Positions 89 to 16,656 of a DNA stretch of 64,000 nt are shown here, piece after piece. Location: positions 1 to 64,000 of the forward strand of contig QNFX01000001.1 of NCBI GenBank assembly GCA_003650125.1, written 5' to 3'. This DNA is from Campylobacterota bacterium (GTDB lineage: Bacteria; Bdellovibrionota; Bacteriovoracia; Bacteriovoracales; Bacteriovoracaceae). The first letter of the stretch is position 1. Each line of letters opens with the position of its first letter. The notes beneath the pieces are model-generated. The model was given only the letters and a program-made list of their open reading frames with translations, was not told the origin of the DNA and did not search any database. The position numbers and the translations under genes are program-made.

Positions 89-577
89 TTAATTGGCCGG
101 TAAAAGTGACATTTTAATAGACCCTATCCAGTGAGGACAGGTCCATACTCCTCTCTGTGTTTCCTTCCAACTTTTTATACAATTCTTGCACATGGTTTTA
201 CCGCATTTTAATTTCATTGGACTTGTCTTCTTTTTCTTGTACTCGGCATAGCATACCTGGCAATCATCCTCTGCTTCACTGGCACTTGAATCAGTGTCTG
301 GGTACCACTTTACCAACTCATCAGCGCTGATGACCCATTTCTGCCGTTTTCCTCCAGGGTCCTCTCCTATTTCAACCTTTGGAGGATTTCCTCTGTCAAC
401 GAACCTGTACAAATAAACACTTTTTCCTTTCCATTCATATACATGTTTTTTCATTCCTTTATCTGAAATTTCAATCCCTCGTTTGTTAAAAAATACATCA
501 CCCTTCCATTTTCCGGCGAAAACATTTGAGGTACTAATCAAAATTAAAATAGAAATAAGATTAAAGAAAAGTTTCAT
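89..577 (-). CDS. Secreted protein with a degenerate RING-finger-like C-terminus
   Basis: This 162-aa protein has a signal peptide (about residues 1-21, ending SNVFA) and starts at an ATG behind AAGGAGCGG. Residues 23-90 are a basic region rich in beta-prone residues that I do not recognise. Residues 106-150 follow RING spacing: C106-x2-C109, then C125-G-K-x2-C130-x2-C133, then C147-P-H-W. The core resembles the classical C-G-H-x-x-C-x-x-C-I of RING domains, but the histidine is Lys127 and the last cysteine is Trp150, so two of eight zinc ligands are missing. RING domains are E3 ubiquitin ligase or zinc modules in eukaryotes. A secreted bacterial one could be an effector, but the changed ligands may mean lost zinc binding or chance resemblance. 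It is transcribed divergently from protease A at 784. Confidence 0.7.
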   Translation of the reverse strand: MKLFFNLISILILISTSNVFAGKWKGDVFFNKRGIEISDKGMKKHVYEWKGKSVYLYRFVDRGNPPKVEIGEDPGGKRQKWVISADELVKWYPDTDSSASEAEDDCQVCYAEYKKKKTSPMKLKCGKTMCKNCIKSWKETQRGVWTCPHWIGSIKMSLLPAN

Positions 578-783: not shown

Positions 784-2010
784 ATGAAAAAGCTATTTTT
801 AATTCTTCCACTGGCTGCCTTATTGTTTGCGACACAGGGCTGGGCGCCGCCTCCGGGGAAAGGTGGAGCTACAGGCGGTCCAGATATTTCAAAATGTGAT
901 TTGAAACCAAAAGATCAGACTAAACTAAAATTAAAGGATAAATCTGGAAAAATCCACTATATTTGTACCGGAGTTGCGATATGTGGAGGAAAAGCTACTC
1001 CCGTTTCTTGTAAAGTTAGCGAAAGAGAATCTTGTCCAACAGCAAAGGTTTGTATTGGTTCTCCGGTGCATAATATTCTTAAGGATTCGCCCATAAAATA
1101 TAATATTCCCAAAGCCTATCAGTCTATTAAATTTTGTAAAGACGCCAAACAATCCCTGGAACCTTTTCCCGATATTAAGAGAGAAGAATTTATTCCGATT
1201 ACTGTTGTTGAGGCACAGCCGAAAATTTTATCAGCTCCAAGCGGAATAAATAATTATACTCCACCAAAGCATGAACTTGGAAAGGCTCAAGAAGTTACCT
1301 CATCAGTATATAAGGCAAATACATTTTTTAAACCAGCAGGAAAGTTAAAAATGTGTGAAAAATTTAATTTTGAACCTAACGAATGGCATGATTGCTCTGC
1401 TTCAGTTATTAAAATTGGCAAAAAAATGGCCTTGGTAACAGCAGCCCATTGTGTGTTCAATTATAGAGCAGAAAAAAAGCCTTATTTATTCTATTATGAC
1501 TTACACTTTATACCAGGATTGGGCCTAGAATCATCTGAAAAGAAATTTTTTGTAACTAGTATTATTATTCCTTGGGGATTTAGGCAGTTGGGACCAGGTT
1601 ATCATAATTATGATATTGCAATTCTTGAATTAGCCCAGGAGCCAAGAGAAAATTGTTGTTTTGGTTTGATAAATACAGCCATGACAACTCCTGGAATTCA
1701 AATTGGCTATCCTGTAGCACCACCCTTTTCAGATAAGGAAAAGAAGATGTATTATTTATCTATAGAAAAATTTTTGGAAGAGTCAGTTATCCCTTCGGAT
1801 ATGACTCAGGGGTCTAGCGGAGGGCCTTGGGTAGGAAATTTTCAAAAGAAGGGAAATTATGGGTATATTTCTGGCATAAATTCACGAAAAAGTGAATTAG
1901 ATAAAAAGAAGGTTATGCGGTCCCCAGGAAGGTGGGACGTAATTGAAAATCTATTCCTTTGCTCAAAGGGAGAAATGGATTGTGAGATTATAAATTTGCC
2001 TACAAAATAA
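784..2010 (+). CDS. Secreted trypsin-like serine protease A with shared six-Cys N-terminal module
   Basis: This 408-aa protein opens with a signal peptide (residues 1 to about 16-21), a Pro/Gly-rich APPPGKGG stretch and the shared module with Cys38, 61, 67, 76, 84 and 90. A variable linker (about 91-185) leads into a chymotrypsin-fold (S1 family) protease domain. His222 (VTAAHC), Asp277 (NYDIAI) and Ser345 (GSSGGP) form the triad, so it should be active. A Cys-Cys pair near 291 recurs in proteases C and E. The ATG has GGAG 5 bases upstream. The linker has the right place to be a propeptide, but no cleavage site is obvious. The companion gene at 2090 follows after a perfect hairpin. Likely secreted to the periplasm or beyond; the substrate is unknown. 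Confidence 0.92.
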   Translation: MKKLFLILPLAALLFATQGWAPPPGKGGATGGPDISKCDLKPKDQTKLKLKDKSGKIHYICTGVAICGGKATPVSCKVSERESCPTAKVCIGSPVHNILKDSPIKYNIPKAYQSIKFCKDAKQSLEPFPDIKREEFIPITVVEAQPKILSAPSGINNYTPPKHELGKAQEVTSSVYKANTFFKPAGKLKMCEKFNFEPNEWHDCSASVIKIGKKMALVTAAHCVFNYRAEKKPYLFYYDLHFIPGLGLESSEKKFFVTSIIIPWGFRQLGPGYHNYDIAILELAQEPRENCCFGLINTAMTTPGIQIGYPVAPPFSDKEKKMYYLSIEKFLEESVIPSDMTQGSSGGPWVGNFQKKGNYGYISGINSRKSELDKKKVMRSPGRWDVIENLFLCSKGEMDCEIINLPTK

Positions 2011-2089: not shown

Positions 2090-2953
2090 TTGAAAATAAA
2101 ATTTATTATTTTTATTATTATGTTTTTAAAAACCTCAGTTGGTTTTTCAGAAGAAGTTTTGTTAAATGAATATCAAAAAATGTTATATGAAAATGTTGAG
2201 TCCTTAAATCAGTATAAGACCGGATTGGTATTTCTTGAAAAAATGAATTCAGACGGACTATTTATCTACCCTAGAGATGGAAATTCCAAAACCACAATTG
2301 TTTGCTACGGAAGATCTGAGAAAAAATATACTATTTTGCTTTCTGGAGTTGAAAAAGAGAGCCTGGGGGTAAAGGTCGATGAGCGCTATTACCAACTGGA
2401 AGAAAAGAAATTTTTTTTAAAGAAAGGTGAGCCAAATTATTCTAGATGTAAGGAGTATTTTGGTGCAGAGATTGCTAAAATAGATCGTATTAAACTAAAG
2501 AAAAAAAAACTTGTTTCCCTTTTAAATTTTAAAAAGATTAACAATGATGATTGGATTTTAGGGGTTCATAAAATTGATAAAAAAAGATTAGAAGTTACAT
2601 TAGAACCTAGGCCTATATTGGGACCTTCTCCTTATTGCGGACCTCGAGGGGTATTTATTGAAGAGCCTAGGCCTAAGACCCTCAAATTAGATGACCTCGA
2701 TGCTCATGTTATTACGTATGATTTAAGTCGCCCTTGGGAATTTGCGAAAGAGAAGATATATCGGATAAAAGACAAGGGGGTTAAAGTAACATTGGAAAAA
2801 CTCCCCCGTATTCATATAAGTACAATATATGAAAAGATTAAGGATGTTGAAGTAGATTTTGGAGATTTTACCTATACTACCAGCAGACATGGATGTTTAG
2901 GGCAGGTTCAGGGGCCAAAGAAGACATGGCGGGAGATTTATGAGAGAATCTAA
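2090..2953 (+). CDS. Secreted companion protein, type I, behind protease A
   Basis: This 287-aa protein starts at TTG behind AAAAAAGGA and has a signal peptide (about 1-20). I do not recognise the family. It is a clear paralogue of the product of 4639-5529. They share CxGRSE (Cys72), a Tyr-Gln-Leu-x-Glu-Lys-Lys-Phe segment near 101-108, CKE near Cys120, a Tyr-Cys-Gly-Pro turn at Cys183, a DVEV segment near 255 and a final Cys near 269. The four conserved cysteines could form two disulfides in the periplasm. The fixed position behind a protease suggests an inhibitor, chaperone or co-secreted subunit, but this is inference only. Confidence 0.85.
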   Translation: MKIKFIIFIIMFLKTSVGFSEEVLLNEYQKMLYENVESLNQYKTGLVFLEKMNSDGLFIYPRDGNSKTTIVCYGRSEKKYTILLSGVEKESLGVKVDERYYQLEEKKFFLKKGEPNYSRCKEYFGAEIAKIDRIKLKKKKLVSLLNFKKINNDDWILGVHKIDKKRLEVTLEPRPILGPSPYCGPRGVFIEEPRPKTLKLDDLDAHVITYDLSRPWEFAKEKIYRIKDKGVKVTLEKLPRIHISTIYEKIKDVEVDFGDFTYTTSRHGCLGQVQGPKKTWREIYERI

Positions 2954-3257: not shown

Positions 3258-4541
3258 ATGAAAAAGCTATTTTTAATTTTTCCACTAGCTGCCTTATTGT
3301 TTGCGACACAGGGCTGGGCGCCACCTCCGGGGAAAGGTGGAGCAGCTGGTTTTGATGCTTCAAAGTGTGATTTAAAGCCCAAGGAGCAGACTAAAGTTGC
3401 CCTAAAAGATAAATCAGGTAAATTAATATTTGTTTGTATAGGATCAGCTGTATGCGGAGGTAAAACAGTTCCTGTTAGCTGTAAGGTCTCGGAAAGGGAA
3501 GCATGTCCCATGGCAAAAAAATGTGTCGTTTCAGATGCTACTGGTATCAACGAATATTATGGAATTCTTTGTAGTGATTTAAATAGACCAAATGCTCCAC
3601 AAAAGAAAATGTTTGATAATATAAAACCTGAAATGCTCAAGCCTCAGGTTATAGAAATTCAAGAAAATAAATTAAAAGAATTTTTAAAAACTTTTAAGGG
3701 AGAGAAAATTTTAAGGGATAATGTAATAGAGATTAATTTAAAAAGCGGTCATCCTTATCATACAGAACAGGTTTCCACCGGTAAATCATGGAATGTTGGC
3801 GAAAGGAAGGGAGCTTATTTACCAGTTGGGAAACTAGAAGTTTTTGATAAGGGAAATCCAAATGAGTATATTCCATGTACAGCTTCCTTAATCAAAGTTC
3901 CAGCAACCGGAAGGTATGGTTTAGTTACTGCAGCTCATTGCTTAATGGTCAGTCATAAGAAAATATGGCCAAAAACGATTAAATTTAGCCTTAACTACAA
4001 CTATGGGGACCCAATAATTTTATATGGGACCAGGGCCATCATTAATAAAGGATATTTTACTCTTCCTGGTGGAAGCTTTGACCAATTTATATTTGATCTT
4101 GCCTTAGTAGAATTAGAGGAAACTAATCTTAAATTAGAAACATTTGGTCTTATAACAAATCCGAATAAAGATATTTTAAGGGGTACCTCTCTTGGATATC
4201 CTATTTGGCTTCCGGGCACGGGTTGGGTGAAGGATAATATGAGAGCAGTTGAAATTAAAGACATGGAAGCTATTACAAGCCCTCCCCCGGCTAATAATAT
4301 TTATAACTATAAAATACCAACCGATTTAACCTGGGGTTCTAGCGGAGGTCCTTGGATTGGATGGGACAAAAAAAATGGTTCATCAACAAATCGGAAATTC
4401 GGATTTATATTAGGAGTAAATTCCAAAGGGAAAAGAGGGAAATATGTTTTAAGTCCTTTTTTTGGTTCCGCAATGTTGAATCAATATAGATGCTTGAATA
4501 GGGACGATTCTCAATGTAAAGATACTTGTCCAAATAGGTAA
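3258..4541 (+). CDS. Secreted trypsin-like serine protease B with shared six-Cys module
   Basis: This 427-aa protein has the same signal peptide and module as protease A (Cys37, 60, 66, 75, 83, 89). A longer linker (about 90-190) leads into an S1-type protease domain with His227 (VTAAHC), Asp280 (FDLALV) and Ser362 (GSSGGP). It lacks the Cys-Cys pair seen in A, C and E. The first 75 coding bases are nearly identical to the other copies, including silent positions, while the rest is strongly diverged, so the 5' end has been homogenised or is constrained as nucleic acid. AAAGGAG precedes the ATG. A type I companion follows at 4639. Confidence 0.92.
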   Translation: MKKLFLIFPLAALLFATQGWAPPPGKGGAAGFDASKCDLKPKEQTKVALKDKSGKLIFVCIGSAVCGGKTVPVSCKVSEREACPMAKKCVVSDATGINEYYGILCSDLNRPNAPQKKMFDNIKPEMLKPQVIEIQENKLKEFLKTFKGEKILRDNVIEINLKSGHPYHTEQVSTGKSWNVGERKGAYLPVGKLEVFDKGNPNEYIPCTASLIKVPATGRYGLVTAAHCLMVSHKKIWPKTIKFSLNYNYGDPIILYGTRAIINKGYFTLPGGSFDQFIFDLALVELEETNLKLETFGLITNPNKDILRGTSLGYPIWLPGTGWVKDNMRAVEIKDMEAITSPPPANNIYNYKIPTDLTWGSSGGPWIGWDKKNGSSTNRKFGFILGVNSKGKRGKYVLSPFFGSAMLNQYRCLNRDDSQCKDTCPNR

Positions 4542-4638: not shown

Positions 4639-5529
4639 ATGGGAATTAAAATTTTCAAGGAAGTCTTTAAAAAATCAAAGCTGCATTGGATAACCATTTG
4701 TCTACTTTTTATGGTAATTACTGGAGCTTTTGGGGAAGATCAAATAACTGTTGATGAATATAAAAATCTTCTCCTAAAAAATGTAGAAGTTCAGAATAGT
4801 TTAAAGGAGGGCATGGTATTTTTAACTAGTTTTGAAAAAGACTATATTTTTGGCAATTTTCGAACAGATGAACTTGCCAAAAATGTTCCTTGTAGAGGAC
4901 GTTCAGAAGTTAAGTCCACAATCCTATTTTTTGAATTTAAAGGAAACCGCTTCTATCAACTTGATGAAAAGAAATTTTGGTTGGATGATAATGATATAGA
5001 TTATTTAAATTGTAAGGAACATTTTAAGGGAGACCTAATTGAAACACAAGAAATCACTTTAAAAGAGAAAAAAACTCTCAGTTTGCTTGATTTCAAAAAT
5101 CTTTTAAAAGATAAAAAACCCGAATTTTTTGTATTAAAAAACCATATAATAAAGATTATCCGGGAACCTGATTTTAACCATTCAATACCTACTTACTGCG
5201 GTCCTATCCCCCCTCAACCCTATTCTAATAAAAAAATAGACTTTGCAAAGGATGAAAGAACCTTAGAAATGGAAGAATATATTAATTTAAAATGGCCTGA
5301 GCCTTTTAGGGTTAAGAAAATATATTTAAATTACCTTAGAAGATGGGGCTTCAAAAGGGAAAGACTTCCCAATATAGATATCAAAGAAAAATACAAAAAA
5401 ATTATGGATGTTGAAGTCAATTTAGGGTCGTATTCTTATCCGCTCACAGAAGGGTGTAAAAAAGAAAAATCCTTTCCCAAAAAAAAATGGAAGCATATTA
5501 TAAATTGGCGTCCTCCTTGGCCTTATTAA
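4639..5529 (+). CDS. Secreted companion protein, type I, behind protease B
   Basis: This 296-aa paralogue of the 2090-2953 product has the same four cysteine positions and the same RSExK, YQLDEKKF, CKEHF, YCGP and DVEV landmarks. The N-terminus is longer: a basic stretch precedes the hydrophobic segment near residues 18-32, so a later start or an uncleaved anchor is possible. The gap after protease B is 97 bp and holds a weak hairpin (AAAACTT with AAGTTTT) but not the long stem seen behind protease A. Function unknown; its conserved place behind a protease points to a partner role. Confidence 0.82.
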   Translation: MGIKIFKEVFKKSKLHWITICLLFMVITGAFGEDQITVDEYKNLLLKNVEVQNSLKEGMVFLTSFEKDYIFGNFRTDELAKNVPCRGRSEVKSTILFFEFKGNRFYQLDEKKFWLDDNDIDYLNCKEHFKGDLIETQEITLKEKKTLSLLDFKNLLKDKKPEFFVLKNHIIKIIREPDFNHSIPTYCGPIPPQPYSNKKIDFAKDERTLEMEEYINLKWPEPFRVKKIYLNYLRRWGFKRERLPNIDIKEKYKKIMDVEVNLGSYSYPLTEGCKKEKSFPKKKWKHIINWRPPWPY

Positions 5530-6204: not shown

Positions 6205-6311
6205 AGCAATTCTCCTTTATATTGGTTGAATCGCTCTTTTTTGGTAAGTTGGGCCTAGACCCCTCATAAAAAGTAATGGCCATGATCCGATCAATGAGCA
6301 TCGGAGGTTCC

Positions 6312-6668
6312 ATGGATTCTAAAAATTTAATCATCATCGAAAAAATTAAAAGTCTTTACTCACAACTTAAAAGCACTGGCGTTGGGAAAAAATATCCACC
6401 GGCAATGAAGGTCCTTATTCGAGAATTATTTATAAATGGGATGGCCAAAAAAGAAATAGCCAGATCCATTCCCGTTTCCATGTTTACCATCAGGAAATGG
6501 ACCGCTGACATTGAGGTACCTGAAAATAATGATTTTGATTTTTCGCCAATCTCAATTAAATATGATTCTGATCAAAAATATATTATAAGACATGTTTCGG
6601 GATTTTCTATTGAAGTGAATGATCTCAATTCTCTTTCCTTAATCTTGATGAAAATTAAATCACTTTGA
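6312..6668 (+). CDS. TnpA-like helix-turn-helix protein of the IS66 element, inverted
   Basis: The start is placed at 6312, behind CGGAGG, giving 118 aa. A longer frame from 6276 has no ribosome-binding site. Residues near 30-60 form a transposase-type helix-turn-helix (pattern KYPPAMKVLIRELFINGM then KKEIA...FTIRKW). The last 25 residues, with GFSIEV and a leucine-rich tail, resemble the C-terminal end of IS66 TnpA. In usual IS66 elements tnpA lies just upstream of tnpB on the same strand. Here it is at the opposite end, pointing toward tnpC, and the two coding ends overlap by 9 bases. Assignment to TnpA is by pattern only. Confidence 0.65.
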   Translation: MDSKNLIIIEKIKSLYSQLKSTGVGKKYPPAMKVLIRELFINGMAKKEIARSIPVSMFTIRKWTADIEVPENNDFDFSPISIKYDSDQKYIIRHVSGFSIEVNDLNSLSLILMKIKSL

Positions 6669-8180
6669 TGGTGGCGATAGCGCCGATAATTCTTTGACCA
6701 ACTTGTCCATGATCTCGCTACTGAGCCGTGAGGAATACTGGTAAGGACTTTCAAGCTCTTCACCTTTGGCCGAACGATGGGCCATCTCATTAATGTAGCC
6801 CCTGGCATCGAGCCCATTTGATTTACAAGATTCTATCACGGAATAAAAAAATGAACCTACATCCGCACCATTGATCGATTTAAAATGAAGGAAGTTTTTT
6901 CTCCCCATTACTGGGCACCTTTGTCTTCTTTCCGCCATATTATTATCTATCGGAACATTTTCATCATAAAGAAAAAGGTGAAGGCCATCTTTCCTATCTA
7001 AATAATAATTGATCGCCTTCCCCATAGAAGAGGAATCTAGATAATGTCCATCTTGATTTTGAATCCAGTTATCAATTTCCTTTATGACTTTTAAAGATTT
7101 GTCCGATCTAAGATCTTTTAAATCTTTCACTTCCTCGGCCTCATGTTCAATTTCATAAAGTTCATCGATGAAATCCACCATCTTTTCTGCCTTTGGATCA
7201 TGATTCATGGCCTCAAAAAATTTGCGCCTAACATGGGCCCAGCAAAAGGCATGGCCTATATTTTTCATTTGATCTAAAAAATTGTAACCGCCATAACCGT
7301 CTGTCACCACATTGCCAGAGGTGTAGCCTCTCAACATTTCTCTTGCAACCGATCCCGATCTTGTTGGCTCAAATTGATAAAATGCCCCTCTTGGATTGGA
7401 CATGGACCAAATGTATCCCTTGCTTTTATTAGGGTTATAAAAGTTTATGGGGGATTCATCGATATGAATCCATTTTTCGCCAAGGATATCTTGCCTGATC
7501 ATTTCTTGAAGTGGATAAAGACGATTGTAAAGGTGTTCGGTTAATCCAAAAAGGGTTTTAACTTCAACATTTAGTCCTGCCCTTTTCATTTGTTTGCGCT
7601 GTCTTTCCAGAGGCAGATGATCTTCAAACTTATCACAAGCAATTTGTGTTGCCATTTGAATCGAATACTCACCACCGGGAGTTAATTTTACTCCTCCAGG
7701 AGCGGTTGAAATCTTGTTACAACATTTACAGGAATACTTTTTTCTCTTGTGCCTTTTTAAAAGATAACGTCTTTCGATGACTTCAAACTCTGAAGATTCT
7801 TCAAAACAGTTTTTCATTTCAGAGACTTTATCACTTCCACATTTAGGGCATAGGCCATCTTCAAGATTGTATTCAATGATTTTCTGATCAAGAGTTATCT
7901 CTTCATCTTCATGGTTTTCATTTTTGGATTTATTATGGGGAAGCTTTCCCTTTTTTCTTTTATTTTTTGGACTATTGGCCTTTCTTTCCTGTTTGGAATC
8001 GAAGACTCTTTTTCTAAGGGCCTTTAATTCTTCGCTTAATTTTTGAAGAATTTTAACATCCTTTTCTTTTTCTTTTTGCTTTTGGGCAACTAGCTTTTCA
8101 AGGGTGAGAACTTTTTCTTGAAGAAGTTTGCCGGCTTCCCTTAAAAATTCTTTGTCATTTTCTTTATCAAAGTCATACAT
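6660..8180 (-). CDS. tnpC: IS66 transposase TnpC
   Basis: This 506-aa protein has the full IS66 layout: an N-terminal coiled coil and basic region (1-100), a zinc-binding motif (CPKCGS near 113-118 and CKCC near 150), and the DDE catalytic domain. Catalytic acids are in HIDESP, VVTDGYGGY and NNMAERR, and the hallmark CWAHVRRKFFEA is present. An IS66-type C-terminal tail (SCKSNGLDARGYI) follows. Nothing is truncated, so it may still be active. It lies 43 bp after tnpB. Confidence 0.95.
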   Translation of the reverse strand: MYDFDKENDKEFLREAGKLLQEKVLTLEKLVAQKQKEKEKDVKILQKLSEELKALRKRVFDSKQERKANSPKNKRKKGKLPHNKSKNENHEDEEITLDQKIIEYNLEDGLCPKCGSDKVSEMKNCFEESSEFEVIERRYLLKRHKRKKYSCKCCNKISTAPGGVKLTPGGEYSIQMATQIACDKFEDHLPLERQRKQMKRAGLNVEVKTLFGLTEHLYNRLYPLQEMIRQDILGEKWIHIDESPINFYNPNKSKGYIWSMSNPRGAFYQFEPTRSGSVAREMLRGYTSGNVVTDGYGGYNFLDQMKNIGHAFCWAHVRRKFFEAMNHDPKAEKMVDFIDELYEIEHEAEEVKDLKDLRSDKSLKVIKEIDNWIQNQDGHYLDSSSMGKAINYYLDRKDGLHLFLYDENVPIDNNMAERRQRCPVMGRKNFLHFKSINGADVGSFFYSVIESCKSNGLDARGYINEMAHRSAKGEELESPYQYSSRLSSEIMDKLVKELSALSPPSK

Positions 8181-8223
8181 AGATAAATTTTAAGTTGGCC
8201 AACACAATAGGCCCAGAAAAAAA

Positions 8224-8568
8224 TCATCTTTTTCGTAATATTTTTTTTCCTGACTTGCTGAGAGGAATTTGACCGCCATTTAAAATCAGATTTAGTTCAT
8301 TGGAGTTGATCTCAGTCACTTCAGAAATGCGATCAAAAGACATAAAACGGCCACGTTCGAGTTTTTTATGAATGAGCACCAGGCCATTGCCATCAAAGAA
8401 AATGGCCTTAGCGGCCTTTCTATTCTTTGCGACGAATAAAAACAGTGATCCAGTCATGATTTCTTTTTTAATTTTATTTATGACGATGAAGGATAGGGTA
8501 TTGTGGCCTTTGCGCATATCTGTGTATTCGTGAAAAAGATAAATGGGATATTTGGGATCAAAAATCAT
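8224..8568 (-). CDS. tnpB: IS66 accessory protein TnpB
   Basis: This 114-aa protein matches IS66 Orf2/TnpB: IYLFHEYTDMRKG near the N-terminus, GSLFLFVAKNRKAAKAIFF, then DGNGLVLIHKKLERGRF. It is needed with TnpC for transposition in studied IS66 elements. It starts 60 bp inside the right inverted repeat, leaving no room for a tnpA upstream, which fits with the tnpA-like gene at the other end. Confidence 0.9.
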   Translation of the reverse strand: MIFDPKYPIYLFHEYTDMRKGHNTLSFIVINKIKKEIMTGSLFLFVAKNRKAAKAIFFDGNGLVLIHKKLERGRFMSFDRISEVTEINSNELNLILNGGQIPLSKSGKKILRKR

Positions 8569-8763: not shown

Positions 8764-10089
8764 ATGAACAAGCTATTTTTAATTTTTCCACTAGCTGCCT
8801 TATTGTTTGCGACACAGGGCTGGGCGCCACCTCCAGGAAAGGGTGGGGCGACTGGCGGTCAAGATGTATCAAAATGTGATTTGAAACCAAAAGAGCAAAC
8901 AAAAATTACTCTCAAAGATAAAGCCGGGAAGGTACACTATATTTGTACTGGAATTGCGGTTTGTGGAGGCCAGTCAGTACCTGTCAGCTGTAGAGTGAGC
9001 GAGAGAGAAGCTTGCCCCATGGCTTCAAAGTGTATTAGTTTTTCTAATTTTCATTTGGACACCTCCCAAAATTTAGAAAATAACGATGAAGTACTTATTT
9101 ATGACCTTCCGGATCGAATCCAAGAGTCGGACAGAAGAGTAATCGAGAGAGGAGAAAGCTCTATGCCTTGGCCAATGCCAGAATTTGAAGATAAAATTGA
9201 AAACCCTTTCGAATTTATTGAATTAAAGACAAAAAAAAATCCTACCTACCTGGCCGAACCGCTCAATCTAATAAATTACTTTGGGGAGCAAGGACAAAAA
9301 GCGGGAAAAGGTGTGAAAGTACAAATATCTAATCCTTTTTTAAAGCCGATTGGAAAATATCATAAGTATATCAATAATAAATATGCTGGGGCTTGCTCAG
9401 GGTCAACAATTTCATTAGATCCCAAAGGAAAAAAAACAGGAAGCATTGCGGTTGTTACTGCTGCTCATTGTTTAATGAATCCAAATAGGACTATGTTAAT
9501 TAATAAAGCTGAATTTACCCCTATGGCCGGTTTAAAAGATAAACTTGGAAACCCTGAAAATACTAAAGCCTATGCTGTAAGGAGTATAGTTTTTCCCGCC
9601 AATTTTATAAAAAGAAAGGACTTTTCATTTTGGAATTTTGATTTTGCAATTCTTATACTTGATGAAATAATACCAACAGATTTCTGTTGTTATGGTTTAA
9701 TCGCAAATGGTGGAATCGCTCCAGGGTTATCTTTGGGGTACCCTTCCGTACCTGGAACAGATTTTCAGGGAGACCTTTGGGATGTTTTAATAAAATGGAA
9801 TGGCATTAAAACAGGTGGATATCAAACTGGACAAAGAAAGGTGTATTATAAAGAAATATCTAGTAATTTAGATACAGGAATAAGTGGTGGGCCTTGGATT
9901 GGAAGCAATTCTGATGGGAGTAAGTATGGATATATAATTGGTATAAACTCTCGTGTTGGACCTAGGGGTAAAAGACCCCGAACCCTTACGAGATCATCAA
10001 TCTTAGAAGACTGGATCATTGATGTAATTAATTGTGCTAAAGTAGGAAAAACGAAGGGAAAGTGTAAAAAAATAACGAGGTTGCCTTAA
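8764..10089 (+). CDS. Secreted trypsin-like serine protease C with shared six-Cys module
   Basis: Three ATG codons are in a row (8758, 8761, 8764). The third lies 6 bases from the GGAG and gives the same N-terminus as its paralogues, so it is chosen (441 aa). The signal peptide and module have Cys38, 61, 67, 76, 84 and 90. A long acidic linker (91-190) precedes an S1-type protease domain with His235 (VTAAHC), Asp293 (FDFAIL) and Ser374. The serine motif is GISGGP instead of GSSGGP, still compatible with activity. A Cys-Cys pair near 308 matches A and E. The type II companion pair follows at 10181. Confidence 0.92.
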   Translation: MNKLFLIFPLAALLFATQGWAPPPGKGGATGGQDVSKCDLKPKEQTKITLKDKAGKVHYICTGIAVCGGQSVPVSCRVSEREACPMASKCISFSNFHLDTSQNLENNDEVLIYDLPDRIQESDRRVIERGESSMPWPMPEFEDKIENPFEFIELKTKKNPTYLAEPLNLINYFGEQGQKAGKGVKVQISNPFLKPIGKYHKYINNKYAGACSGSTISLDPKGKKTGSIAVVTAAHCLMNPNRTMLINKAEFTPMAGLKDKLGNPENTKAYAVRSIVFPANFIKRKDFSFWNFDFAILILDEIIPTDFCCYGLIANGGIAPGLSLGYPSVPGTDFQGDLWDVLIKWNGIKTGGYQTGQRKVYYKEISSNLDTGISGGPWIGSNSDGSKYGYIIGINSRVGPRGKRPRTLTRSSILEDWIIDVINCAKVGKTKGKCKKITRLP

Positions 10090-10180: not shown

Positions 10181-10552
10181 GTGAAAAAAAATATATTTAA
10201 GTTAATTATTATTACAGCATTTTTAATTCTGCCTATAAAAGTATTTTCCGGCACGAATACTTTTCCAAGTTCTTTTAATACAAAAAAGGTTCAAATCCTT
10301 TTACTAAATGATTTTATAGAATTAATGAGAAAACCTTCAAATAAGAGTTATTATAGAATTAAGGTTATTGATGTTAACCTAAAAGTCCTTGATAATGGCC
10401 TAAACATTTATGATGGTAAAATTTATTTTAATACCCCTGAGTGTGAGAATAGAACCTTTAAGAAAGAGTGGATTTCCAGTGCCTGTGAAAATGATTACTG
10501 TATGGCCATTTGGTCTGAACTAAATGAATGCTCAGTAAAGGATGGGTCATGA
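10181..10552 (+). CDS. Small secreted companion, type II, first of pair behind protease C
   Basis: This 123-aa protein starts at GTG without a clear ribosome-binding site and has a signal peptide (about 1-23, ending VFSG). The mature part starts with FPSSF, followed by a helix-like region, beta-prone segments and four cysteines in the last 40 residues (pattern C-x14-C-x4-C-x11-C). Three paralogues share this (10549, 14697, 15059). I do not recognise the family. The size, the helix-then-strand pattern and the disulfides are what one would see in cystatin-like inhibitors, but no sequence motif of cystatins is present. Its stop overlaps the next start. Confidence 0.8.
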   Translation: MKKNIFKLIIITAFLILPIKVFSGTNTFPSSFNTKKVQILLLNDFIELMRKPSNKSYYRIKVIDVNLKVLDNGLNIYDGKIYFNTPECENRTFKKEWISSACENDYCMAIWSELNECSVKDGS

Positions 10553-10905
10553 AATTTTTCATCCTCCCTATTTTACTCCTTTTGTTGACCCAAGTATCTC
10601 AGGCAAAATCAGATTCTTTTCCATCTGGGTTTAAACCTAAAAAGGCAAAATTATTATCTATTAAAAATTTTATTTCTGACATGGAACAAAACTCAAAATA
10701 TAGGGACATATTCTACAATATAACATACGTAAATCTAAAAATAACGGAAGAAAGCTACTATATTGAGGTAGTTTTTAGTACCCCAAATTGCGTGGAAAGA
10801 AGGGCATACTATACTTGGCGACCAGTCTCCTGTACTGATTTTAAGTGCAAACCGACTGATAGCAAAATTGAAAATTGTCTATATTTTAAAAATCATGTGC
10901 ATTAA
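10549..10905 (+). CDS. Small secreted companion, type II, second of pair behind protease C
   Basis: The start is set at the ATG at 10549, which overlaps the preceding stop (ATGA) and gives a normal signal peptide of about 20 residues. A frame from 10528 exists but begins inside the preceding gene. The mature protein opens with FPSGF and shows the same four-cysteine ending as its neighbour (NC, SC, KC, NC). Stop-start overlap means coupled translation and suggests the two products are needed in fixed ratio, perhaps as a heterodimer. Confidence 0.8.
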   Translation: MKFFILPILLLLLTQVSQAKSDSFPSGFKPKKAKLLSIKNFISDMEQNSKYRDIFYNITYVNLKITEESYYIEVVFSTPNCVERRAYYTWRPVSCTDFKCKPTDSKIENCLYFKNHVH

Positions 10906-11236
10906 ACCAGTTCTATCACAACATTTCCCCTCTTCCCCAAAAATCTACTTATGATAATCTCATAGGTCCCATTCAGGATAGGGCCTATTATGAAATCGTT
11001 ACTCAAGATTTGAGGCTGAGTTTGTGCTCCTTTTTGCCCGTTGGTATCTAGCATACCCGCTTTCATATAGGAACATAGAAGAAATGATGAAAATGAGAGA
11101 GCCTTAGGAAGATCCTGGCGACTTAAGGAGAGAGGAGAAAGGTCAGCGCAGCTTTTCTTGTTTTTAAAAATAAGGAAAGGAAAATTCCACTTTTGTGAAA
11201 TAACGAAATAAATTCAACCTTAACTAAATTTTTTAT
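10906..11236. other. Long intergenic stretch upstream of the promoter repeat of gene D
   Basis: I see no gene. An inverted repeat (ATAGGTCC at 10962-10969 with AGGGCCTAT at 10980-10988) lies near the left end but no T-run follows. The base composition (stretches of AGGAGA and GCGCAGC) is more GC-rich than the flanks, so it may be a decayed gene. From 11237 the 81-bp repeat begins. Confidence 0.4.
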
Positions 11237-11317
11237 ATAACCTTTGTTTAATTTCTAGATTCGACCTTGAGTTAATCTTTAGTTATCAACTTAATTTATT
11301 TAGAAGGAGCTAAGTTA
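11237..11317 (+). repeat. 81-bp direct repeat, copy 2, upstream of module gene D
   Basis: Identical over 81 bp to 3109-3189. Downstream, 35 bases differ at about 12 positions, then identity resumes through the -10, the leader and the first codons. So the two promoters differ almost only in the inverted repeat. Confidence 0.9.
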
Positions 11318-11323
11318 TCTATT

Positions 11324-11358
11324 TTCCTGATCACGATGGTCGGGAATTGTGGTAAAAT
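11324..11358 (+). promoter_or_regulatory. Promoter of module gene D: inverted repeat plus extended -10
   Basis: TTCCTGATC (11324-11332) and GGTCGGGAA (11338-11346) pair over nine positions if G-T pairs are allowed, around a 5-base centre. TGGTAAAAT (11350-11358) follows at the same spacing as for protease B. Changes relative to that copy partly compensate each other across the symmetry axis. Confidence 0.5.
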
Positions 11359-11385
11359 AGAAGGTGATTTAAAAAGGAGTTCATT

Positions 11386-12297
11386 ATGAACAAGCTATTT
11401 TTAATTCTTCCCCTAGCTGCCCTATTGTTTGCGACACAGGGCTGGGCGCCGCCTCCGGGAAAAGGTGGGGCGACAGGGGGTCAAAACCTTTCCAAATGCG
11501 ATCTCAAGCCTAAAGATCAGGAAAAGTTTGATTTTACTGACAAAAAAGGGAAAACCCACTTTCTTTGCACTGGCGAAGCCAGTTGTGCAGGTAAAACCAT
11601 CCCAATTTCCTGCAAGGTAACTGAAAAAGAAGAATGTCCAATGGCTAAAAAATGTGTAGTTTTTCCTATTGGTGTAACTGATGAAATTTTCAAAACAGAG
11701 TCATACCACCGGAGCACATGTAGAAATGTTGATTTAATTTTTAAAAGCACGGAAAAGGGTAATGAGATGGAGTTCAAGGTCTCTCTAAAAAGTCAATTTT
11801 GGATGAAAGTGAGTTCTACTAACGGAGGAGCTCGGGGAAAGTACAAGAGAACTACAGTTTTTTACATGTATACGGACGGATTAACCCACAGACAAGCCGA
11901 TATCAAGGTTGATCCAAAGCTTAAGGTCTTAGAATATTTTCGTAAGAAAAAAATCACAAAAGAGCAAATTATTCCTTTCTGGGCCATCCAAAAAGAAGGT
12001 TGGGGTTACGTAGGAGGACATAATAATCACAGGGATGTTGCTAAATTTATCGACAGTGAAGTATTAAAAGAAAAAGATAAAAATGGTTTAGGAAAAAGAC
12101 TATACAAAGATTTAGATAAAGAATTTCAAAGTCACCTGAATGATTTCATGCTAATGCTGAAAAAAGAACTTGGGGGAGGCAAGGTTATACCTAAAATAAC
12201 AGCCGATACTAAGGGAAGATGCCTCGTACCTATAGACGCAGACATATCACGGTACTTTGGAAACCCTGGTTCATATTTAATAGAATTTAAAAAATAA
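11386..12297 (+). CDS. Secreted protein with the shared six-Cys module but a non-protease C-terminus
   Basis: This 303-aa protein has the same signal peptide and module as the four proteases (Cys38, 61, 67, 76, 84, 90). After about residue 95 the sequence has no relation to them: no VTAAHC and no GSSGGP. The unknown domain (about 100-303) has a Lys-rich, beta-prone first half, a GGHNNHRD cluster near 206-213, a charged helical segment (KEKDKNGLGKRLYKDLDKEF), and one late cysteine near 285. It may be another hydrolase or binding domain. This swap shows that the N-terminal module is a portable unit. No companion follows on the same strand; a convergent secreted gene lies at 12327. Confidence 0.85.
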   Translation: MNKLFLILPLAALLFATQGWAPPPGKGGATGGQNLSKCDLKPKDQEKFDFTDKKGKTHFLCTGEASCAGKTIPISCKVTEKEECPMAKKCVVFPIGVTDEIFKTESYHRSTCRNVDLIFKSTEKGNEMEFKVSLKSQFWMKVSSTNGGARGKYKRTTVFYMYTDGLTHRQADIKVDPKLKVLEYFRKKKITKEQIIPFWAIQKEGWGYVGGHNNHRDVAKFIDSEVLKEKDKNGLGKRLYKDLDKEFQSHLNDFMLMLKKELGGGKVIPKITADTKGRCLVPIDADISRYFGNPGSYLIEFKK

Positions 12298-12326
12298 CAT
12301 CCTTTAATCTCTATTAAAAGCAAGAG

Positions 12327-12860
12327 TTAAATCTCATTAAAAATTATATTTTCGGAATATAAAACAAATTCTGGATAATTAAAATCTTCGGCCATTGCCA
12401 GACCGTATATTGGAAAAGGTCCATGATAAAAAGCCTTCCCTTTTTCAAAGGGAGGGTAAACGTCAAAATGAATCAGAGGTGTCTTACAAACCTCCACTAA
12501 CTTGACCATATTTTTAACTTCGGAAAATACTTTAAGCACCTCTATCACTCCATTAAATTCCTGACATTGATTAACCATATGGGCAATTTCATACTTATCA
12601 GGAAATTTATTTGATCTCACCCACCTTTCAGAAATTTCACTTACACCTTTTTCATTAATTTTTTCTTCCCTCAATAAATAAAATTTCAATACACTATCAT
12701 ACTCAATAATTTCTGCAGATATCCTTCTTTCAATCGGTGCCTCAGTTGAGTTAACAAAACCTTTCCAGATGAATTTGATCCGATCCCCCACTTCAACAGA
12801 GTAGGCTCTAAAAGCGAGAACAAAACAGAAAAAAACAAGAAAAATCATTTTAAAAAACAT
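12327..12860 (-). CDS. Secreted protein of unknown function, convergent with gene D
   Basis: This 177-aa protein has a signal peptide (about 1-21) and an ATG behind GGGAGGGCA. The mature part starts VEVGDRIKFIWKG, beta-rich, with two cysteines (near 99 and 125). I do not recognise it. It ends 30 bp from the end of gene D on the opposite strand. It could serve as partner to D in the way the companions serve the proteases, but the opposite orientation argues for separate control. Confidence 0.75.
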   Translation of the reverse strand: MFFKMIFLVFFCFVLAFRAYSVEVGDRIKFIWKGFVNSTEAPIERRISAEIIEYDSVLKFYLLREEKINEKGVSEISERWVRSNKFPDKYEIAHMVNQCQEFNGVIEVLKVFSEVKNMVKLVEVCKTPLIHFDVYPPFEKGKAFYHGPFPIYGLAMAEDFNYPEFVLYSENIIFNEI

Positions 12861-12980
12861 ACTGCCCTCCCTATAAATATATCTATTAATGAAATACTTT
12901 AAGATTAAATTCTCGAAGAATCAAAATTTGAATGTTTTTAACAAAACAGTGCGTAAAATATCACAAAAAAGATCTGCTTA

Positions 12981-13033
12981 TTCTCTCACCAACTCACTTT
13001 TATTCCTAACAGCTCCCCTTATTAGGAATAAAA
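12981..13033 (+). repeat. Second copy of the 53-bp repeated block
   Basis: Ungapped match to 5573-5625 (43 of 53). This copy has a clean inverted repeat (TTCCTAA at 13003-13009 and TTAGGAA at 13022-13028). Both copies lie in gaps of the cassette island. A 61-codon frame crosses the block, and both copies could encode SLT-S-LFL-x2-P-x2-RNK, so a decayed small gene is possible. Confidence 0.5.
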
Positions 13034-13285
13034 ACTTACAACCGATATCATCAACCTTTTTATTTAAGCTCTAAGGCCTATTTTTTATCCGGCCCTAACC
13101 TTGATATCTTTTTTCCCTTGATCACCCCGCTTGTGCGATTTATGGGCCTTATACTTATAGAAAATTTAAACCCTTTAAAACAAATTTTATTTAGAAGTGT
13201 CTTTTCAATTCCTTGTCCCTCCTCAGGTCAACAGCTTTTTACGGGATACTAAAGGGAAATTCAATTTTTAGCTATAACCGCCTTA

Positions 13286-13318
13286 CTTGATAAATAAAAT
13301 CAAGCTTCGTGGTATAAT
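13286..13318 (+). promoter_or_regulatory. Promoter of protease E: inverted repeat plus consensus extended -10
   Basis: CTTGAT (13286-13291) and ATCAAG (13299-13304) are a perfect 6-bp inverted repeat. TGGTATAAT (13310-13318) is a consensus extended -10, the best of the five copies. The inverted repeat has the same place as in B and D but another sequence. Confidence 0.55.
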
Positions 13319-13345
13319 AGGAAGTAGCTTAATCAGGAGACAAAA

Positions 13346-14587
13346 GTGAAAAAGCTATTTTTAATTCTTCCACTAACTGCCTTATTGTTTGCGACACAGG
13401 GCTGGGCGCCGCCTCCGGGAAAAGGTGGGGCGACAGGGGGTCAAGATCTTTCTAAATGTGACCTTAAACCTAAAGAGCAGACTAAAGTTACTTTAAAAGA
13501 TAAATCTGGAAAAGTTCATCATATTTGTACTGGGCTGGCGGTTTGTGGAGGAAAATCAGTAACTGTCAGTTGTAAAGTAAGTGAAAAGGAAGAATGCCCG
13601 ATAGCAAAAAAATGTGTAACGATGTCGGGTGTTGAATCTGCGATAGATGGAATTGAGGATCATGAATACGACTCCATGACAACTGAGGAGCTTAAGAAAT
13701 ATTGGACTCCAGAAAGAATTGAGAAGGCGATTCCTGAAGAGATGGAAGTAGACCCTAAAGATCTTAGGGGTCTTAGTCAGTCTGAGGAACCTCTTGGACG
13801 TTCCCTAATAATATCTAATCCAAGAAATATTCCAGATCAACTTACAGATTCTGCTGGAAAGCTGACAGAAGGCCCTGCCATTAAAGTGAAAGAGCTGACT
13901 CCATTATATCGACCAACAGGAGTCCTTCTCTATAATAAAAAGGGTATCACTGGTGATTTTAGGTGTACAGCCTCTTTAATTTACCTAGAAAAGACTAAAG
14001 AGATAGGCATGCTATCGGCGGCGCATTGCTTCTATGACCAAAAGACTAGAAAGCCATCCCGTTGGCATACTTTTGTCCCTGAATATGGGTTTATAGATAA
14101 AAGAAAACATGAATACTACGGGGTTAAAAGACATATGGTTTTCGGTCCATGGAAGCGTGTGGGACGAGTGCGATGGGACATTGATTTTGTTATTGCGACC
14201 TTTAGTAAAAAGGTGCCAGAAAAATTTTGCTGTCATGGGATAATTAAAGGGTTATCAAGGCCCCCCAAATTTACACTAGGCTACCCTGCGGTTGGACGCT
14301 TTGCAGGCAATCGAAATATGCTCTTAATTAATCTATACAACTTACATACTGGGGAGAGACCATTTATAAGATCTGAGAATGAGTTTACGGGGGGATCAAG
14401 CGGAGGGCCTTGGATAGGAGGTGACCCTCAATCAAAAAAGTACGGCTATATTTTTGGTATTAATAGTTGGATTCGTGGAAAAACGAATCCAAATAAACAA
14501 ATGTATTCCCCCCCATTTGGAAAAAATATTGAAAATATGTATAAATGTTTTCTTAAAGAACGGGGAATTCCAGGATGCCCATATTAA
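13346..14587 (+). CDS. Secreted trypsin-like serine protease E with shared six-Cys module
   Basis: This 413-aa protein starts at GTG behind CAGGAG. The module is almost the same as in C (Cys38, 61, 67, 76, 84, 90). The acidic linker (91-185) has several acidic clusters. The S1-type protease domain has His227 (LSAAHC), Asp280 (WDIDFV) and Ser352 (GSSGGP), so it should be active. The Cys-Cys pair near 295 matches A and C. The type II pair at 14697 and 15059 follows. Together C and E form one subgroup by companion type. Confidence 0.92.
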   Translation: MKKLFLILPLTALLFATQGWAPPPGKGGATGGQDLSKCDLKPKEQTKVTLKDKSGKVHHICTGLAVCGGKSVTVSCKVSEKEECPIAKKCVTMSGVESAIDGIEDHEYDSMTTEELKKYWTPERIEKAIPEEMEVDPKDLRGLSQSEEPLGRSLIISNPRNIPDQLTDSAGKLTEGPAIKVKELTPLYRPTGVLLYNKKGITGDFRCTASLIYLEKTKEIGMLSAAHCFYDQKTRKPSRWHTFVPEYGFIDKRKHEYYGVKRHMVFGPWKRVGRVRWDIDFVIATFSKKVPEKFCCHGIIKGLSRPPKFTLGYPAVGRFAGNRNMLLINLYNLHTGERPFIRSENEFTGGSSGGPWIGGDPQSKKYGYIFGINSWIRGKTNPNKQMYSPPFGKNIENMYKCFLKERGIPGCPY

Positions 14588-14696
14588 TTATCGCCATTGA
14601 TGCTTAGCTCAAGAAAGTATATTTTACAAATTATAGTTTTCATTGCTTTGATTCTTCGATTAATGTAACCCTAAAGATAAATGGGGTTATTAAAAC

Positions 14697-15059
14697 ATGA
14701 TGCGGTTTCTTTTTATTCTCCTTTTCTATTTTTGCTCTGGAATACCTGCCTACTCTGAAGACAATCCATTTCCCCAATGGTTTACCCCTGAGCTAGCAAA
14801 ATTAAAAACTATGGAAGAATTCATCAGAATTCAAAAAAAATCTTCTGAAAATGTATTTTATCATATTCAAAAAATTGAGATTAAAGAAATAATGTATAAT
14901 GTTGGCTCCAATGTTTTTGAGGGTAATATTGTTTTTACCTCTAAAGAATGTTCAAAAAAAACCTTTGTTGTGATGTGGTTTGCAGATGCCTGTGACGACC
15001 AAGAATGTCCCTTGATGGTCATTGGTGAAACTCTTTGTGAAGATAAGGAAAGCGATTAA
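14697..15059 (+). CDS. Small secreted companion, type II, first of pair behind protease E
   Basis: This 120-aa protein has a signal peptide (about 1-20, ending AYSED). The mature N-terminus has FPQWFTPELAKL, like FPSSF and FPSGF in the pair behind protease C. The four late cysteines have the same spacing (SKEC, DAC, QEC, LC). The last base of the stop is the first base of the next start (TAATG), so translation is coupled. Function unknown. Confidence 0.8.
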   Translation: MMRFLFILLFYFCSGIPAYSEDNPFPQWFTPELAKLKTMEEFIRIQKKSSENVFYHIQKIEIKEIMYNVGSNVFEGNIVFTSKECSKKTFVVMWFADACDDQECPLMVIGETLCEDKESD

Positions 15060-15406
15060 TGAAAAAGATAATATTTTTTTTAACTGTTCTTCTATCTATC
15101 CCGACTTATTCGAATATAGCTAAGTTTCCTCCCTGGTTTTCACCAAATAGTGCCAAAATCTATGCTATAAAACATTTTATCACCGAAATGAGTATAGAGA
15201 AGGAGACCCTTTATCAAATTAGCGAATTGGATTTAACTCAAAAAATCTTGGAATCCGGGGAAAAAGGAATCGAAGTCAATCTTCTTTTTAAAACTGATAA
15301 ATGTATTGGTAGGAAGGCCATTTTTAAATGGAGATCCAGCCAATGCAGCAATTTAAAATGTAAGCCCTACTTAGAAGAAATTGGGAAATGTCCTCAAACT
15401 ATTTAA
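15059..15406 (+). CDS. Small secreted companion, type II, second of pair behind protease E
   Basis: This 115-aa protein has a signal peptide (about 1-19) and mature start FPPWFSPNSAKI. It resembles the second gene behind protease C more than its own neighbour in the region of RxAxxxWR followed by QC-x4-KCKP. So the pair as a unit was duplicated, not the single genes. Four cysteines are conserved. Confidence 0.8.
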   Translation: MKKIIFFLTVLLSIPTYSNIAKFPPWFSPNSAKIYAIKHFITEMSIEKETLYQISELDLTQKILESGEKGIEVNLLFKTDKCIGRKAIFKWRSSQCSNLKCKPYLEEIGKCPQTI

Positions 15407-15657: not shown

Positions 15658-16656
15658 ATGAGGAAAATTAAAGGAGTTATTTTTATCACTTCTTTTTTAG
15701 TTTCAAGTAGCGTACTTGCCTGGAAAAATATTGGTCATAGTTCAGTGGCATTTATCACCTTAAAACTTGTAAATAAAAAGACTGAGACCGAATTAAAAAA
15801 GATTTTGGGGTTAAATTTGCTTGATACTTTACCACAGGCTTGCAATTGGCCTGATACTATCTGGGACACCATTTTTGGAAAGACCCAAGGAGTCTGGCAT
15901 TTTGTAACAGTTCCGAACGGAAAGACTTATTTAAATACCCCTAAAAATCCCAAGGGTGATGCCATTGTTAAATTGATAGAATATGAAGACAATTTGCGCA
16001 AGGGTTATAAAAACCCCGGAAAGAAAGCAGATAATGAAGAGGCCTTGCGATACATCTGTCATTTGATCGCAGACCTTCATCAACCTCTTCATATTGGAAG
16101 GCCGGAAGATAGAGGAGGAAACTCTATTAGATTAGATTTTAAATATAGCACAGAAAAGGGACCCGAAAGTGTCAAGACAAGCTTACATAATCTCTGGGAT
16201 GATTATTTAGTGGGAGTTTTAATAGGTAAGTTAAATCATGTGATGCCTTGTGGAAAGAATCTTCACAAGAATTGTTACTGGATTCCTAGTTTACCAAAAA
16301 CTCCCGGGGAATATGCTCAAAATATCAAACACAATCTGGATTTTAGTAATAAGCTTGCCGAATCTTTAATGGCCTGGGATTCAAATAATAAAAGATGGGC
16401 CAGTGGGACCTATATGACTTGGGCAGATGAATCACAGGGTTTAAGGGCAGTAACTTACGAAGGATCAGGGGTTTTGCTTAAAATGGGCCAAGATGTCTCC
16501 AACTTTAACCTTGATCGTTATTATAAATTCCATAAAAATATGCTCTCCCAAAGAATCCTTCAGGCAGGTGTAAGACTTGCCTTTATATTAGATAATATTT
16601 TTTCTGGAAAAGCTCTCTCTACAGCTGAAAAAGATATGCGATCACAAGTTAAATAA
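15658..16656 (+). CDS. Secreted S1/P1-type zinc nuclease
   Basis: This 332-aa protein has a signal peptide (1-21) and then Trp22 as the likely mature N-terminus, the residue whose amino group binds zinc in P1 nuclease. All expected zinc ligands can be seen: His27 (NIGH), Asp in NWPD, His in WHFVTVP, the HLIADLHQPLH cluster, and LHNLWDD. The enzyme class cleaves single-stranded DNA and RNA and removes 3' phosphates. AGGAG precedes the ATG. In a predator it would degrade prey nucleic acid in the periplasm. A second member is at 59929. It closes the secreted island. Confidence 0.93.
   Translation: MRKIKGVIFITSFLVSSSVLAWKNIGHSSVAFITLKLVNKKTETELKKILGLNLLDTLPQACNWPDTIWDTIFGKTQGVWHFVTVPNGKTYLNTPKNPKGDAIVKLIEYEDNLRKGYKNPGKKADNEEALRYICHLIADLHQPLHIGRPEDRGGNSIRLDFKYSTEKGPESVKTSLHNLWDDYLVGVLIGKLNHVMPCGKNLHKNCYWIPSLPKTPGEYAQNIKHNLDFSNKLAESLMAWDSNNKRWASGTYMTWADESQGLRAVTYEGSGVLLKMGQDVSNFNLDRYYKFHKNMLSQRILQAGVRLAFILDNIFSGKALSTAEKDMRSQVK

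What the first reader, a model, noticed from the sequence alone, without database searches (positions are those of the whole stretch)
10181..15406. Coupled pairs of 120-aa secreted paralogues behind proteases C and E
Each pair overlaps by stop-start and both members are paralogues. The second genes resemble each other more than their partners, so the pair was duplicated together with its protease. The F-P-x2-F start and four late cysteines are conserved. Size and form fit small inhibitors.
Basis: partly seen in the sequence, partly recalled or inferred. Interest (0 to 1): 0.62.

Follow-up and report, generated by a model that had tools for sequence, protein, structure and literature searches.

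The report
Paired secreted partners of predator proteases
A relative of bacterium-eating bacteria carries two copies of a pair of small exported proteins, each copy right behind a secreted protein-cutting enzyme, and they are most likely safety catches that keep the enzyme from digesting its own maker; they belong to a larger set of mix-and-match secreted protein gene sets in this genome.

Summary
Four proteins of 115-123 aa with signal peptides lie as two stop-start-coupled pairs behind proteases C and E. All have FPxxF and four late cysteines spaced exactly 14-5-10. The quartet groups first with first and second with second (99/97; neighbour grouping rejected, AU p 0.012). That each pair was duplicated together with its protease is unproven: the protease tree is unresolved. 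The predicted fold is one helix plus four strands (pLDDT 87.6), nearest to designed cystatin-fold and NTF2-like proteins, at Z 8 or less. The cystatin QxVxG motif is missing in 6 of 6.

The larger find: a signal peptide and six-cysteine leader occurs 15 times in this genome, on unrelated C-termini that include four proteases. I list 17 cassettes. Each has a neighbour with an export-like N-terminus, and neighbour families mostly follow effector families. The leader is in 1 of 368 phylum genomes. Best reading: polymorphic secreted effectors with periplasmic self-protection partners, the pairs being cognate inhibitors (untested). Rivals: chaperones, co-secreted subunits. Two of six family members have no protease beside them. 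New variant of a known kind.

The parts
10181..10552 (+). small secreted paralogue C1 (123 aa, GTG start; mature part about 10250-10549), FPSSF, four late Cys
10549..10905 (+). small secreted paralogue C2 (118 aa from ATG 10549, ATGA overlap with C1; the ORF lister's start is 10528)
14697..15059 (+). small secreted paralogue E1 (120 aa), FPQWF, four late Cys
15059..15406 (+). small secreted paralogue E2 (115 aa, TAATG overlap with E1); mature part modelled at pLDDT 87.6
8764..10089 (+). protease C: leader module + S1 serine protease (His235, Asp293, Ser374, counted from 8764)
13346..14587 (+). protease E: leader module + S1 serine protease (His227, Asp280, Ser352)
784..2010 (+). protease A: same leader module + S1 protease; its partner is of another family
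2090..2953 (+). partner of protease A with export-like N-terminus (287 aa), paralogue of the B partner
3258..4541 (+). protease B: same leader module + S1 protease
4639..5529 (+). partner of protease B with export-like N-terminus (296 aa)
11386..12297 (+). cassette D: leader module + C-terminal domain without Pfam or NCBIfam match
12327..12860 (-). convergent partner of D with export-like N-terminus (177 aa), family shared with two other cassettes
13346..13618 (+). leader module of protease E: signal peptide + GKGGATGG linker + six-Cys domain; the six-Cys part is found at 15 places of the genome by profile

Best explanation
Each pair encodes two Sec-exported proteins of about 100 residues, probably disulfide-stabilised, made in one operon with a secreted S1 serine protease. 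Most likely they are cognate self-protection proteins: they fold in the periplasm, bind the protease made from the gene in front, and keep it inactive until it leaves the cell towards prey. The two members are long-separated paralogues kept side by side in both copies, so they probably do different jobs, for example two halves of a heterodimer, or one for the zymogen and one for the mature enzyme. The proteases are four of 15 genes with a common signal-peptide/leader module (17 cassettes with two that keep only the signal peptide and upstream DNA), with variable C-termini and variable partners. Shown: gene order, coupling, paralogy, cysteine pattern, predicted fold, shared leader, partner-effector association. 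Inferred: disulfides, one operon with the protease, export of the protease out of the cell, binding, inhibition, predatory use, division of labour.
For: Stop-start coupling within the pair and 91 and 109 nt gaps after the protease. Catalytic His/Asp/Ser motifs intact in 4 of 4 proteases. Partner family follows effector family, by families I drew: 7 cassette pairs alike in both, mean 1.05 in shuffles, 2 of 20000 shuffles reach it; outside the proteases 5 of 5 effector-alike pairs, 5 of 20000. Leader shared across effector types. Compact alpha/beta(4) fold at pLDDT 87.6, nearest to a designed cystatin-fold protein and among NTF2-like domains, Z up to 8.0. NTF2-fold immunity proteins exist in polymorphic toxin systems (PMC3482391, passages); a periplasmic self-protection protein in operon with its enzyme exists in Bdellovibrio (PMC4686830, abstract and one section); small inhibitors coupled to secreted proteases are a known arrangement (PMC3462683, passages). 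Nearest named genomes by SecD are Halobacteriovoraceae/Bacteriovoracaceae MAGs.
Against: No inhibitor family matches. Two of six known members have no protease beside them: the own-genome copy at C1:159581 and the G136 homologue (18 kb of ORFs read by eye). Proteases A and B, intact by motif too, have partners of another family, so S1 activity alone does not call for the small pair. The N-terminal part of the A/B partner family also occurs beside a DM9-repeat effector that is no protease. The permutation test does not allow for duplication of whole cassettes. Relatives of the D-partner family lie without a leader gene in two other genera (about 3.4 kb read each). The fold match is at the level the tool calls a common arrangement.
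Confidence: 0.5

Rival explanations
1. The pair is a dedicated periplasmic foldase or secretion chaperone (as lipase-specific foldases are) that the protease needs in order to mature or be exported; it helps rather than inhibits.
For: Behind the protease, with signal peptides, matched to effector family. In several related cassette pairs the partners are better conserved than the effector C-termini: 51 against 31%, 55 against 42%, 48 against 33%, 37 against 25%, and for A/B 33 against 29%; for C/E it is even (29 and 34 against 32%). This fits a scaffold as well as an inhibitor. Lipase-foldase precedent: PMC13381987, search listing and start of abstract only.
Against: Proteases A and B of the same family do without it. 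A foldase would be expected to stay with its client, yet two members are orphans.
Confidence: 0.2
2. The small proteins are co-secreted subunits: a heterodimer that travels with the protease and gives it a target, or that acts on prey by itself.
For: All carry export-like N-termini; pairs kept as two different paralogues in both loci; the listed structural matches include NTF2-like binding domains.
Against: They lack the leader module that marks the presumed exported effectors, so there is no sign that they take the same route out of the cell.
Confidence: 0.17
3. The family has a general periplasmic or surface function, and its place behind two proteases is a by-product of cassette duplication.
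For: Orphan copies in the own genome and in G136; relatives of the D partner family lie apart from any leader gene in two other genera.
Against: Both pairs sit directly behind a protease in coupled form although the protease parts after the module are only 32% identical; chance retention in both is less likely.
Confidence: 0.13

Closest known systems
Bd3460 and DD-endopeptidases Bd3459/Bd0816 of Bdellovibrio (PMC4686830; abstract and section 10 read)
   Same: Exported self-protection protein in operon with a secreted hydrolase (Bd3459) in a predatory bacterium; proposed to hold the enzymes inactive in the predator's periplasm.
   Different: Bd3460 is an ankyrin-repeat protein and its targets cut peptidoglycan; here a small alpha/beta protein with four cysteines, in pairs behind S1 proteases.
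Staphostatins / Bacteroides Bfi-Bti inhibitors next to papain-like proteases (PMC3462683, passages)
   Same: Small inhibitor genes transcriptionally coupled to a secreted protease gene; 116-138 aa for the Bti proteins.
   Different: [quoted passage not shown] a cited title says staphostatins resemble lipocalins, not cystatins. Here serine proteases, signal peptides on the partners, two paralogues per protease.
Lineage-specific leader polymorphic effectors: MafB-N (Neisseria), Microscilla-N, APD1/APD2 (PMC3482391, section 37 read)
   Same: Conserved N-terminal domain by a signal peptide, found in one lineage only, with highly variable C-termini.
   Different: Leader of about 60 aa with six cysteines; no MafA-like constant gene noticed in the ORF lists (not tested); partners with export-like N-termini; S1 proteases as C-termini.
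Imm-NTF2 and Imm-NTF2-2 immunity families (PMC3482391, passages)
   Same: NTF2-type alpha+beta fold used as an immunity protein.
   Different: Linked there to NucA and JAB toxins; no Pfam match to such a family here; the present proteins have four conserved cysteines.

Membership tests
Cystatin family (I25) | QxVxG loop (motif recalled) | tested here: not met
   absent in 6 of 6 sequences
Cystatin family (I25) | helix packed on a four-to-five-strand antiparallel sheet | tested here: inconclusive
   model has helix 11-26 and four strands; best match is a designed cystatin-fold protein, Z 8.0, rmsd 2.9, 75 aligned, tied with TraM and other designed rows, NTF2-like rows at 6.4-7.0, all at the tool's common-arrangement level
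Cystatin family (I25) | inhibits papain-like cysteine proteases | not testable with these tools
   neighbour proteases are S1 serine proteases, so a classical cystatin target is not next door
Latexin-like inhibitors | two cystatin-like domains in tandem in one chain (recalled) | tested here: not met
   single domain of about 100 residues per chain (E2 only modelled); two chains together were not modelled
S1 serine proteases (proteases A, B, C, E) | His-Asp-Ser triad in AAHC ... D ... SGGPW context | tested here: met
   motifs in 4 of 4; Pfam Trypsin 20.9 bits for E (cut-off 20.6) and 20.5 for C (just under), A and B not scanned; PDB match 3cp7 at 9.2e-7 for E. Fold not modelled.
Polymorphic effectors with a lineage-specific leader | constant N-terminus, variable C-termini in one genome | tested here: met
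   15 module copies; the C-termini of 17 cassettes fall into 4 families plus 6 single ones by BLASTP
Polymorphic toxin/immunity systems | adjacent partner that neutralises the toxin | not testable with these tools
   partners present and associated with effector family; neutralisation and toxicity untested
Immunity/inhibitor protein of protease C or E | binds and inhibits the cognate protease | not testable with these tools

The most novel reading that the evidence does not exclude
A Bacteriovoracales-like genome has built its own polymorphic secreted-effector system: a portable signal peptide and six-cysteine leader, often with its upstream DNA, is joined to proteases, a DM9 domain and unknown domains, each guarded in the periplasm by its own exported protein. 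The coupled small pairs would be a new family of heteromeric serine-protease inhibitors on a cystatin/NTF2-type scaffold.
Probability: 0.35. Interest if true: 0.75.

Novelty: new variant of a known kind. Interest (0 to 1): 0.57.

Why it matters
How predatory bacteria keep secreted digestive enzymes from destroying their own envelope is known for very few enzymes (the 2015 Bd3460 paper calls its protein the first such one). If the pairs inhibit their proteases, they give an unrelated self-protection principle in this group, a new inhibitor family for serine proteases, and a simple test: co-expression in laboratory E. coli. The wider cassette set offers many effector-partner pairs, most with no known domain, from which new prey-damaging activities and their antidotes could be sought.

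Tried and rejected
Duplication of the pair together with its protease: tested with the parts after the module and with the cores; unresolved, AB|CE least favoured by column bootstrap in six of six alignments (16-105 of 1000; 27-62 of 1000 on the core). By single score E is nearest to C but C is nearest to A. Called unproven, not refuted.

Known families for the small proteins: Pfam, NCBIfam and PDB sequences gave only sub-threshold hits or none. Foldseek gave no match at E 0.001 or better. No entry titled as a cystatin inhibitor is among the 50 VIA rows shown, which does not exclude one.

Common fold of the partner families: the A/B partner model failed (pLDDT 34.2, two sequences). Profile comparisons of the small family with three other partner families gave nothing. 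BLASTP gave one weak cross-family partner hit (E 0.010). So the partners look unrelated to each other, as far as these tests reach.

Wider distribution: of the nine genomes in the phylum search with the six-row profile, only G000 and G136 convince. Seven weak hits (E 1e-4 to 1e-2) were set aside: six lie in open frames of 530-563 aa and were not looked at further; the G061 hit falls opposite a 508-aa gene. Earlier searches gave eight weak hits with the signal peptide included and one with five stops (G051). The leader profile gave one weak hit with two stops outside the own genome (G029). The leader was not found in the species contigs, viral contigs, plasmids or phages; the small protein E1 was not found in plasmids. 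The contig scans used signal-peptide patterns only, so a diverged leader would be missed.

Upstream DNA: identity was computed without a shuffled control in AT-rich sequence, so values near 60% mean little; protease C, C29:3230 and C29:6011 have no partner above 60%.

HTH gene beside both orphan copies: only a 36-residue similarity (E 2e-5), too common a motif to use.

Promoter/terminator scan: 4 terminator-like sites against 5.7 expected, 36 promoter-like against 24.2; not used.
Full report
What is there. Behind protease C (8764-10089) and protease E (13346-14587) lie two pairs of small genes: 10181-10552 with 10549-10905, and 14697-15059 with 15059-15406. The members overlap as ATGA and TAATG; the lister's start 10528 for the second C gene is replaced by ATG 10549, which starts a normal-looking signal peptide. 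Mature parts are about 100 residues (cleavage sites placed by eye). Every member has FPxxF near the mature N-terminus and four late cysteines spaced 14-5-10. A fifth copy stands alone at C1:159581-159949, and a more distant homologue in genome G136 (another family of the same phylum) has FPSWL and 14-5-9.

Relationships. Pairwise scores, column bootstraps in six alignments, and a likelihood tree agree that first genes go together and second genes go together (143 and 138 against 75-99 for the other four pairings; 974-987 of 1000; 99/97 and p-AU 0.012 against neighbour grouping). With the fifth copy the support is 88/91 or 85/84; branches are long, so this is good but not overwhelming. The pair therefore probably existed before the two loci separated. 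The proteases do not clearly show the same history: the parts after the module are 29-36% identical among A, B, C and E; E scores best with C, C scores best with A, and no topology is supported. That pair and protease were duplicated as one unit is unproven, and not excluded (p-AU 0.39).

Fold. E2, modelled with the other three window sequences, gives one helix (11-26) followed by four strands, pLDDT 87.6, pTM 0.78. Foldseek finds nothing at E 0.001 or better. VIA-align puts a designed cystatin-fold protein first (4r80, Z 8.0, rmsd 2.9, 75 aligned), then TraM and DotI periplasmic domains, other designed proteins, a DUF3887 protein (7.0-7.6), and many NTF2-like domains (7.0 and below). The tool's own note says Z under 8 may mean only a common arrangement. 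So the fold is of the cystatin/NTF2 type in a loose sense; the cystatin family's QxVxG is missing in 6 of 6.

The wider system. The N-terminal 90 residues of the proteases (signal peptide, GKGGATGG linker, six cysteines) recur in this genome: 18 places by sequence at E 10 or better, one of them at E 0.5, 17 at E 0.01, and 15 by a profile of the six-cysteine part. They lie in four clusters (C1 0.8-14 kb, C1 147-166 kb, C2 103-105 kb, C29 3-9 kb). Two of the 17 cassettes I list share only the signal peptide and upstream DNA (C1:147647, C29:7478), and one (C1:156738) is split into two frames. Upstream 200 bases are shared by many cassettes with unrelated C-termini, up to 93% for C1:150102 with C1:162001 and 86% for protease E with C2:103170; 14 of 17 have some partner above 60%, protease A only at 62%, and protease C has none. 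C-termini: four S1 proteases, two D-type, three of a second type, two of a third, and six that match no other, one of which has a DM9 repeat. Each cassette has a neighbour, downstream on the same strand or convergent; I chose these neighbours by position. All 20 neighbour or orphan proteins show an N-terminal hydrophobic segment (one only from a later ATG), against 20 of 35 control genes, some of which are membrane proteins by their look. In the mature parts as I cut them, 19 of 20 have two or four cysteines and one has none. Families of neighbours follow families of C-termini: 7 pairs alike in both against 1.05 expected, 2 of 20000 shuffles. This test ignores shared ancestry by duplication, and the families are my single-linkage groups. 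Exceptions are informative: proteases A/B have a different partner family from C/E; and the A/B partner family (its N-terminal part), the D partner family and the third type's partner family also occur with an effector that does not match (C1:162001, C1:165745, C2:105158).

Distribution. The leader is in 1 of 129 family genomes and 1 of 368 phylum genomes; the same-genus genome G108 lacks it. The small family is in 2 of 368 at E 0.001 (G000 with five copies, G136 with one); at E 0.01 with the six-row profile seven further weak hits were set aside. In G136 I saw no protease or leader gene among the ORFs listed in 18 kb (by eye). The second type's partner family is in 1 of 125, the D partner family in 3 of 125; the two outside copies have a similar xGxFPxxG stretch and no leader gene in about 3.4 kb. 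The host is a Halobacteriovoraceae/Bacteriovoracaceae-like bacterium: best SecD identity over the full length 73%. That it preys on bacteria is inferred from its relatives.

How it most likely works. Protease and pair are made together and exported by Sec. The pair holds the protease in the periplasm; the leader, constant across effectors, takes the protease out or anchors it, and the partner stays behind. This copies the logic proposed for Bd3460 in Bdellovibrio (PMC4686830, section 10) and of protease-inhibitor operons (PMC3462683, passages), within a leader-plus-variable-C-terminus architecture like MafB-N or APD1/2 (PMC3482391, section 37). Steps shown: gene order, export-like N-termini, paralogy, fold model, shared leader. 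Steps inferred: co-transcription with the protease, binding, inhibition, release, target. Why two paralogues per protease is open; the long separate history of the two positions argues for different jobs.

Confidence. Inhibitor/immunity 0.5; foldase or chaperone 0.2; co-secreted subunit 0.17; other 0.13. The orphan copies and the different partners of A and B are the main facts against a simple one-protease-one-inhibitor rule.

Literature. Searches for Bdellovibrio self-protection and inhibitors, polymorphic toxins in Bdellovibrio, protease inhibitors in operons, Halobacteriovorax serine proteases, and cystatin-fold inhibitors in bacteria (12-15 rows shown of 37 to 24,112 each) showed no paper on these proteins among the listed rows; only the named passages and sections were read, and subscription journals are mostly not in the library. 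A 2025 proteome of Bdellovibrio names two serine proteases, predicted to be secreted, as potential prey-damaging enzymes; a term search found 'immunity' and 'self-protect' 0 times in its text (PMC12546842, passages).

Noticed in passing
window 89-577 (-): A signal-peptide protein of 162 aa with a C-terminal RING finger (Pfam zf-RING_2, zf-RING_UBOX and zf-C3HC4 above cut-off), odd in a bacterial genome; the last zinc ligand pair looks altered (CPH, by eye).
   Followed up: partly
L025:12043-13146 (-), C1:164042-165145: A protein that starts with a signal-peptide-like stretch and ends in a HigB/RelE-like toxin domain (E 3.6e-8), lying between two leader cassettes; a secreted RelE-type effector would be unusual.
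   Followed up: partly
L025:10002-11048: Leader module joined to a DM9 repeat (Pfam, 6.8e-8); its neighbour shares the N-terminal part of the protease A/B partner family.
   Followed up: partly
window 6276-8568: Three genes that look like an IS66-type transposon (recalled, no family search) between cassettes B and C.
   Followed up: no
window 15658-16656: S1/P1 nuclease with a signal-peptide-like start (Pfam, 6.5e-41) directly after the E pair, without the leader module.
   Followed up: partly
L025:4700-5665: A D-type cassette split into two successive frames (139 and 171 aa), while its convergent partner is intact.
   Followed up: no
L029:7478-7825: The leader signal peptide joined to a short protein with eight cysteines and no six-cysteine module; its partner has no cysteine in the mature part.
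   Followed up: no
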